Made by a program: the position numbers and the translations under genes. A stretch of DNA of 5,300 bases from an uncultured Colwellia sp. (GTDB lineage: Bacteria > Pseudomonadota > Gammaproteobacteria > Enterobacterales > Alteromonadaceae), in the NCBI GenBank assembly GCA_913020705.1, contig CAJWBY010000234.1, positions 1 to 5,300 on the forward strand. The letters run 5' to 3'. A model generated the notes under the pieces. The model was not told the DNA's origin and did not search any database. It was given only the letters and a program-made list of their open reading frames with translations. The first letter of the stretch is position 1. Each line of letters starts with the position of its first letter. Of this stretch, positions 436 to 1,524 are shown in pieces.

Positions 436-1524
436 CTATTTACCTATTGCTGAAATCTGTCCATGTTTCACGTGAAACATCTTATAATTATTATCAGTTG
501 GAACCAATGGTTCTACTGCCGTTTTATCTATTGCCGTGATGATAACTTGGCAGTTTAACTTACCGATTGCATTATTGAGTAAAGTTCTAGAATTTAGGTC
601 TAGTTCTGCGCCAACATCGTCAATCAATAAAATTGGTTTTACTCGTTTAACTTTTTCGATCAGTTTTGCTTGAGCGAAAGTTAAAGCCAGTAAAAACAAC
701 TTTTGTTGTCCTCTTGAGAATTGGTTATCAATTATCACATTACCTGTTAGAAATTTAACATCAAACTTTTGTGCCCCATAAAGACTAAAACCTGATTTTA
801 TTTCTCGTTCTTTATTCTGTGCTAACACATCACTTAATGATTTTTTACTATTCCAACCTTGCATATAAGATATTGAAATACCATTTGCTAAGCTTGGTAA
901 CATTAATTCTAACCAAGGCTGCAATTCTAAAGTCAGCTCTTTAATATATTCATCACGTAGCTTTGCTACTTTAACAGAAGCTTCACAAAAGATATCAGTC
1001 CAATAACAGAGTATTTCATTATCAACCCTATTTCGTAGACAAGCATTTCTTTGTTTTATAATTCTTGAAAACTCTTTCCATGAATCAGAAAATGATTGTT
1101 TCACGTGAAACAAACCTAGATCTATAAAACGTCTTCTCTGCTTAGGTCCACCAAAAAAAAGTTTAAAACTTTCAGGTGTAATAACCTGCACAGCGATATT
1201 TTTTGCTAATTGTGAAAGCTGCCGATACTTTTCGCCCGAAATTTTTATTTCTGTGATACCCGTCTGAAAATCTTTAGCTACACCAAGTTGTAATGCATTT
1301 GTATCTTTAGCACTCACAACAAATTTTGTTTTATTGTGAGTAACTAAATTTTCAACTTGCGATGTTCTAAATGATTTACCATGACCTAAGTAAAAAATAG
1401 CTTCTAACAAACTACTTTTACCACTGCCGTTATCACCAATAATAAAATTAATATTATCGTTTAATTCTATCGGGTCTGAAGCTAAATTTCTAAAATCAAA
1501 AACAGTAAGTTTTTCTATACTCAT
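436..1524 (-). CDS. recF: RecF, DNA gap repair and RecA-loading ATPase
   Basis: RecF is an SMC-like ABC ATPase that acts with RecO and RecR to load RecA onto gapped DNA and helps stalled forks restart. The product is 362 residues, close to the usual 355-375. Visible motifs are the N-terminal DFRNL, Walker A GDNGSGKS (30-37), YLGHGKSFRT (45-54), GGPKQRRRFID (125-135), the ABC signature FSRGQQK (269-275) and Walker B ILLIDDVGAELD (298-309). The usual GPHR(A/D)DL element before the signature is replaced by GAQKFDV (250-256), a divergence from the family pattern. The ATG directly abuts the dnaN stop (TAA then ATG with no gap) and has no clear Shine-Dalgarno sequence, so translation is probably coupled to dnaN. 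Two perfect parS palindromes lie inside the gene and encode LFHVKQ (138-143) and MFHVKH (349-354). Confidence 0.96.
   Translation of the reverse strand: MSIEKLTVFDFRNLASDPIELNDNINFIIGDNGSGKSSLLEAIFYLGHGKSFRTSQVENLVTHNKTKFVVSAKDTNALQLGVAKDFQTGITEIKISGEKYRQLSQLAKNIAVQVITPESFKLFFGGPKQRRRFIDLGLFHVKQSFSDSWKEFSRIIKQRNACLRNRVDNEILCYWTDIFCEASVKVAKLRDEYIKELTLELQPWLELMLPSLANGISISYMQGWNSKKSLSDVLAQNKEREIKSGFSLYGAQKFDVKFLTGNVIIDNQFSRGQQKLFLLALTFAQAKLIEKVKRVKPILLIDDVGAELDLNSRTLLNNAIGKLNCQVIITAIDKTAVEPLVPTDNNYKMFHVKHGQISAIGK
464..479. other. parS centromere-like site (ParB binding), recF 3' end
   Basis: TGTTTCACGTGAAACA is a perfect 16-bp palindrome and a 16/16 match to the parS sequence known from Pseudomonas and many other bacteria. 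Symmetry extends to 18 bp (463-480, ending in A and T). It lies in the last codons of recF and encodes MFHVKH. ParB would nucleate and spread here to mark the origin region for segregation. No parA or parB gene is in the window, so the partner proteins are inferred. Confidence 0.93.
1097..1112. other. parS centromere-like site (ParB binding), inside recF
   Basis: This is a second perfect copy of TGTTTCACGTGAAACA, with symmetry extended to 18 bp (1096-1113, TTG...CAA). It encodes LFHVKQ in the middle of RecF. It begins 633 bp from the first copy, a multiple of three, so both copies are read in the same codon phase. The flanking base pair differs between the copies (A/T versus T/A), so neither is simply a longer duplication. 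Confidence 0.93.

What the first reader, a model, noticed from the sequence alone, without database searches (positions are those of the whole stretch)
464..1112. Two perfect parS sites embedded in frame within recF
TGTTTCACGTGAAACA occurs twice (464-479 and 1097-1112), each a complete 16-bp palindrome extending to 18 bp. Both sit in recF in the same codon phase, encoding LFHVKQ and MFHVKH. RecF proteins often carry FHVE-like residues at the first position, so the protein motif may have pre-adapted the DNA to become parS. That would mean a centromere element co-opted coding sequence and fixed Lys where relatives have Glu. The window thus joins replication initiation and segregation loci within about 3.6 kb.
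Basis: partly seen in the sequence, partly recalled or inferred. Interest (0 to 1): 0.72.

Follow-up and report, generated by a model that had tools for sequence, protein, structure and literature searches.

The report
Bacterial centromere sites inside recF
Two short DNA sites that very probably serve as this bacterium's centromere lie inside a DNA-repair gene; that arrangement is already known from Pseudomonas, and the comparison made here suggests that the same two spots are used by many related bacteria and dictate part of the repair protein's sequence.

Summary
TGTTTCACGTGAAACA occurs exactly twice (464-479, 1097-1112), both in frame in recF. By sequence they are parS, the ParB-binding chromosomal centromere sites. 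In five related genomes these two recF sites are the only exact parS matches, and each genome has parB. Two parS sites inside recF are already published for Pseudomonas aeruginosa, so this is a new member of a known kind.

The wider pattern is more interesting. Of 163 sampled ParB-bearing genomes from the class and order, 157 keep parS (at most 1 mismatch) at one or both of the same codons, 105 at both. In 94 of 163 every exact core lies in recF. The seven most codon-invariant of 261 recF columns are exactly parS-constrained ones. Where parS is absent most of those residues vary. In five of seven analysed genomes without an exact core, both sites carry the same altered sequence.

So the centromere mostly writes the protein. 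Pre-adaptation holds weakly (site II); 'fixed Lys' is wrong. Binding was not tested; the window's own genome is not held.

The parts
1096..1113 (.). parS site I (18-bp palindrome, core 1097-1112), encodes RecF residues 138-143 LFHVKQ
   Evidence: exact match; same codons carry parS with at most 1 mismatch in 115 of 163 ParB-bearing genomes
463..480 (.). parS site II (18-bp palindrome, core 464-479), encodes RecF residues 349-354 MFHVKH
   Evidence: exact match; same codons carry parS with at most 1 mismatch in 147 of 163 ParB-bearing genomes
436..1524 (-). recF, host gene of both sites
   Evidence: ORF; TIGR00611 315.8 bits against cut-off 172
1525..2628 (-). dnaN
   Evidence: TIGR00663
2672..4027 (-). 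dnaA, marks the replication-initiation locus next to the sites
   Evidence: TIGR00362
3..425 (-). gyrB, 5' part
   Evidence: TIGR01059/NF011501 matches over the part present

Best explanation
The two palindromes are the chromosomal parS (centromere) sites of this Colwellia-like bacterium and probably its whole parS set. ParB, encoded about 12 kb away beyond dnaA in the close relative G001, loads on them and spreads over the dnaA-recF-gyrB region; ParA then moves this complex, so the origin region is segregated first. Shown here: sequence identity to parS, conserved position, exclusivity of exact sites in relatives, a ParB gene with parS-type contact residues, and DNA-level selection on the codons. 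Inferred from other species: binding, spreading, movement. The two positions in recF are a shared and probably old feature of ParB-bearing Gammaproteobacteria. Because the DNA must spell parS, it fixes RecF residues [MLV]-F-H-V-[EK]-[HQP] and their codons at two places.
For: Exact 16-mer twice. 7 of 8 loci found with this RecF carry both sites at the same codons, 0-1 mismatch (the eighth, L008, is a Bacilli bin of 27% identity). TGTTYCACGTGRAACA exactly two per genome, both in recF, in 5 of 5 related genomes. ParB in the same 5 of 5, TIGR00180, contact residues GKSR, N and GHAR conserved against 6t1f (position numbers by my own count). 157 of 163 ParB-bearing genomes keep parS within 1 mismatch at one or both codon positions. 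The seven most codon-invariant of 261 recF columns are V352, V141, E353, E142, H351, H140, V138. Same altered sequence at both sites in five of seven analysed ParB-bearing genomes that lack an exact core. In P. aeruginosa parS1/parS2 lie in recF, ParB binds them, and a strain with only parS2 intact does not show the par phenotype (passages).
Against: No binding or segregation data for this organism; its genome is not held. 24 of 326 genomes with a clear ParB have no exact core, and 5 of 40 without a ParB match have one or two. 6 of 163 ParB-bearing genomes have more than 1 mismatch at both recF sites. Loss of recF parS with loss of ParB is not statistically shown: ParB changes only 5 times on the tree, 4 supported independent pairs, median p 0.5. 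Genome completeness is not told for these handles.
Confidence: 0.92

Rival explanations
1. Protein first: RecF needs F-H-V-[E/K] at both places for its own function, and the parS match is a by-product that ParB may exploit.
For: F-x-V at site II occurs in 16 of 32 distant RecFs without a parS core. F at site I stays in 41 of 41 and H in 28 of 41 ParB-bearing rows without site I parS.
Against: A protein need cannot fix synonymous codons: GTG 121/123 at V141 against 36.8 expected and 148/149 at V352 against 44.9. The most codon-invariant columns are the parS ones. V at site I is 3 of 41 without parS.
Confidence: 0.06
2. The sites bind another palindrome-reading factor, such as a Noc-like protein or a transcription regulator, rather than ParB.
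For: G001 ParB also scores against the Noc model TIGR04285, but below its cut-off (227.2 against 315 bits).
Against: The window has the parS consensus, not the Noc site (consensus strings in PMC7383237, passage). G001 ParB keeps R and G at the specificity positions, not Noc's Q and R. Published ParB binding at recF sites in P. aeruginosa.
Confidence: 0.01
3. Chance duplicate or copied repeat within recF.
For: None found in the calls made.
Against: Expected exact copies about 2e-6 per window; both positions conserved at the same codons in most sampled genomes.
Confidence: 0.01

Closest known systems
Pseudomonas aeruginosa parS1 and parS2 in recF (PMC3909081, PMC5521831, PMC4368675; passages seen)
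   Same: Two parS sites inside recF, near oriC.
   Different: T-C variant of the half-site (TGTTTCAC here, TGTTCCAC there). P. aeruginosa has ten parS sites, while relatives of the window have two exact ones. That its two sites fall at these very codons is inferred; no named P. aeruginosa recF was aligned.
Other intragenic chromosomal parS sites (nine of ten in P. aeruginosa PAO1, PMC4368675 passage; Bacillus subtilis sites in genes, recalled)
   Same: A ParB site overlapping a coding sequence.
   Different: Here the position in one gene is shared across a sample of a whole class, and the codons are visibly constrained.
Noc-binding sites (NBS, PMC7383237, passages seen)
   Same: Related palindrome read by a ParB paralogue.
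   Different: NBS consensus TATTTCCC-GGGAAATA differs from parS at positions 1 and 6 of the half-site; the window matches parS.

Membership tests
chromosomal parS site | match to TGTTTCACGTGAAACA | tested here: met
   two exact matches
chromosomal parS site | lies near oriC/dnaA | tested here: met
   3.56 kb or less from the dnaA start; the origin itself was not mapped
chromosomal parS site | cognate chromosomal parB in the genome | tested here: inconclusive
   own genome not held; present in 5 of 5 related genomes, beside parA in G001
chromosomal parS site | sites few and clustered | tested here: met
   exactly two exact sites, 633 bp apart, in 5 of 5 related genomes; tested in relatives only
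chromosomal parS site | bound by ParB in vitro or in vivo | not testable with these tools
   known for P. aeruginosa sites (PMC4368675)
chromosomal parS site | needed for segregation | not testable with these tools
   needs mutants
Noc-binding site (NBS) | TATTTCCC half-site | tested here: not met
   window reads TGTTTCAC (NBS consensus)

The most novel reading that the evidence does not exclude
The pair of parS sites at these two recF positions is the ancestral centromere of ParB-bearing Gammaproteobacteria and in many lineages the only one. Over that whole history its DNA requirement, rather than RecF function, has fixed two hexapeptides and their codons in RecF. When ParB specificity shifts, both in-gene sites change together (for example Val to Met at both in G090 and G028).
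Probability: 0.65. Interest if true: 0.6.

Novelty: new member of a known kind. Interest (0 to 1): 0.45.

Why it matters
One stretch of DNA carries two messages across many genomes of a bacterial class: a centromere inside a repair gene. Part of what looks like a conserved RecF motif, FHV[EK], is then probably not about RecF function. The paired, matching drift of the two sites in some genomes offers a natural record of ParB-parS co-evolution that can be tested. The class-wide statement was not found in ten searches of the open library. The main survey, Livny et al. 2007, is not held and may contain it.

Tried and rejected
Recent co-option in this lineage: rejected, the same codons carry parS in most sampled genomes. 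'Lys fixed': rejected by counts. ParB loss against recF-parS loss on the RecF tree: under-powered, 4 supported independent pairs, median p 0.5. TTC/TTT against E/K association: Fisher p 1.6e-8 at site I and 1.0e-4 at site II, but rows are related and base composition plays in; within three GC3 strata p is 0.010, 0.0002 and 0.020 at site I and 0.013, 0.13 and 0.035 at site II. It is not used as main evidence. DnaA boxes in the window: 3 matches with up to 1 mismatch, 1.53 expected, 41 of 200 shuffles reach 3, so not above chance.

Rows dropped and sampling: L008 (Bacilli) left out of all row counts. L124-L132 (nine loci chosen because their genomes had 0 or 1 exact core) left out of the 163-genome counts; and one search use the same 163. 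Window and L002-L007 (7 rows) have no ParB status from the samples and are counted apart; 7 of 7 carry both sites. Class: 193 of 232 genomes had a RecF match, about 150 matches were listed, and 113 were taken by rule (G001, G128 and three in four by rank); the weaker unlisted ones were not seen. Order: 140 of 148 had a match; the 28 new loci given with it plus 40 by taking about every second of ranks 31-110. L042 is cut by a contig end and lacks site II. The threshold between clear and weak ParB matches was set by me after seeing the E-values.

Full report
WHAT IS THERE. TGTTTCACGTGAAACA occurs at 464-479 and 1097-1112 and nowhere else in the window within 3 mismatches. Each extends to an 18-bp palindrome (read). 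Both lie in recF (436-1524, minus strand; TIGR00611) in the same reading phase, spelling LFHVKQ (residues 138-143, site I) and MFHVKH (residues 349-354, site II). The neighbours are gyrB (part), dnaN, dnaA, rnpA and yidD, and rpmH (4504-4638, by eye). One exact copy is expected about 2e-6 times per window.

NEAREST RELATIVES. The window's genome is not held. Eight loci with a related RecF were found: four records titled Colwellia (L001-L004, 86-93% identity), two Thalassotalea and an Alteromonadaceae MAG (L005-L007, 54-60%), and a Bacilli bin (L008, 27%). L001-L007 carry both sites at the same codons with 0 or 1 mismatch; L008 does not. In the five held genomes (G001-G005) TGTTYCACGTGRAACA occurs exactly twice, both times in recF. 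Allowing 2 mismatches to the T-T form adds 2-5 scattered hits per genome, each with 2 mismatches; the reversed-pattern control gives 0-4. All five have a ParB. In G001 parB lies at C2:37759-38640, 11.6-12.2 kb from the recF sites. G001 ParB is TIGR00180. It aligns to Caulobacter ParB (6t1f) with GKSR, N and GHAR conserved. By my count these include R173 and G201, which PMC7383237 calls absolutely conserved in extant ParB orthologs (passages).

CLASS-WIDE COMPARISON. Colwellia belongs to Gammaproteobacteria. I searched 232 genomes drawn from the class and 148 from the order of G001, 377 distinct. RecF matched in 193/232 and 140/148. The exact core GTTYCACGTGRAAC is in 198/232 and 113/148. ParB matched in 221/232 and 118/148; of these 4 and 7 are weak (E above 1e-30) and were set apart. 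Two cores per genome is the commonest count: 139 of 217 class genomes with a clear ParB. 24 of 326 genomes with a clear ParB have none, and 5 of 40 without a ParB match have one or two. From recF DNA of 163 ParB-bearing genomes (107 class, 56 order), parS with at most 1 mismatch stands at site I in 115, at site II in 147, at either in 157, at both in 105. In 94 of 163 every exact core of the genome lies in recF: 83 of 107 class and 11 of 56 order genomes. In the order sample extra sites elsewhere are common, and both recF sites are kept in only 20 of 56. The 105 genes with exactly two cores have them 609-669 bp apart, always a multiple of 3.

DNA CONSTRAINT. With each gene's own codon usage as expectation, codons at the sites are nearly fixed: Val141 GTG 121/123 (36.8 expected), His140 CAC 118/123 (49.5), Glu142 GAA 101/102 (54.9), Val352 GTG 148/149 (44.9), His351 CAC 139/149 (60.0), Glu353 GAA 110/111 (60.1). 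A preceding Val or Leu has the TG-ending codon in 79/81 and 27/27 at site I, and 35/35 and 37/37 at site II (rows with FHV[EK]). Ranking 261 recF columns by codon invariance, the first seven are V352, V141, E353, E142, H351, H140 and V138, all dictated by parS; the eighth, K226, is far from the sites. Related rows are not independent, but all columns share that history, so the ranking is an internal control. Where site I parS is absent (41 of 163) F stays in 41, H in 28 and V in 3, and the His codon is CAC in 11 of 28, against 115 of 115 with parS. Where site II parS is absent (14 of 163), H stays in 3 and V in 2.

WHERE ParB IS ABSENT. 2 of 12 rows with no ParB match and 1 of 6 weak rows keep a near-parS (at most 1 mismatch) in recF. 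Their residues include FHHH, FHQH and FHNE at site I and FKIE, FSVD and FTVE at site II. This fits decay after loss of ParB, but ParB changes only about 5 times on the RecF tree, so the correlation is not significant.

CONCERTED DRIFT. Of 24 ParB-bearing genomes without an exact core, recF was analysed in 7. In five of these both recF sites carry the same altered sequence: G090 TTTCATATGAAA twice (Val to Met at both), G028 TTCCACATGGAA twice (Val to Met), G154 TTCCACGTAGAA twice (synonymous), G168 TTCCATGTGGAA twice (synonymous), G009 TTTCACATGAAA and its reverse complement. Of the other two, G237 has lost both sites and G202 has one altered and one lost. A degenerate search finds such sites only in recF in four of the five; G090 has two further AT-rich matches; the reversed control gives 0-1 per genome. 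Four of the five were fetched because their core count was zero, so this is no frequency estimate, but agreement between the two sites was not selected for. Alteration of one site alone also occurs (L131). The pattern suggests ParB-parS co-evolution; the ParBs of these genomes were not examined.

OUTSIDE THE GROUP. 32 distant RecFs of the phylum sample (L217-L248, unnamed) have no core in recF; 16 have F-x-V at site II, five of them FHV. Site II may thus have been easier to capture than site I.

LITERATURE. In P. aeruginosa the closest parS sites lie in recF (PMC3909081, passage), named parS1/parS2 'within the recF gene' (PMC5521831, passage). Their sequences, in vitro ParB binding and the strain with only parS2 intact that shows no par phenotype are in PMC4368675 (passages). 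In Xanthomonas citri the parS named is at the 3' end of dnaN (PMC3937727, passage). PMC7022226, a review, does not mention recF (find). I found no statement of class-wide conservation at fixed recF codons in ten searches (listings); Livny et al. 2007 could not be read.

MECHANISM AND VERDICT. Most likely ParB loads at these two sites, spreads over the origin-proximal operon and is moved by ParA, so the origin region segregates first. Shown here: sites, position, a ParB gene and its contact residues in relatives, selection on the DNA. Inferred from other species: binding, spreading, movement. The element is real and ordinary in kind, but part of an arrangement across the class that is more striking than the finding as first written. 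The odds of the novel reading are put at 0.65 because the order sample, the ParB-positive genomes without sites, and the unread survey weigh against stating it flatly.

Noticed in passing
L035, L124, L125, L126, L127 (recF of G090, G168, G154, G009, G028): Both in-recF sites carry the same non-standard parS-like sequence (such as CATATG or CACATG centres), with Val to Met changes at both places in G090 and G028.
   Followed up: partly
L008:15850-16777 (Bacilli bin): Eight parS-like sites (0-2 mismatches) within about 0.93 kb, roughly 90-200 bp apart, a dense array away from recF.
   Followed up: no
genomes G106, G283, G239, G359: 9-12 exact parS cores per genome, far above the usual two.
   Followed up: no
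genomes G119, G120, G198: Two exact parS cores each although no ParB match was found; an incomplete assembly or a diverged ParB is possible.
   Followed up: no
genome G202, C23:24716 and C23:25546: One altered site in recF and a second, fully palindromic altered site (GTTCTACGTAGAAC) about 830 bp further on, at the fetched recF stretch's far end.
   Followed up: no
window 5002-5035: rnpA (4679-5035) and yidD (5002-5250) overlap in different frames.
   Followed up: no
window 4027: The dnaA ORF is read from a TTG start codon.
   Followed up: no
window 4142-4150 and 4335-4343: A perfect and a one-mismatch DnaA box in the dnaA-rpmH gap; the window-wide count is not above chance.
   Followed up: no
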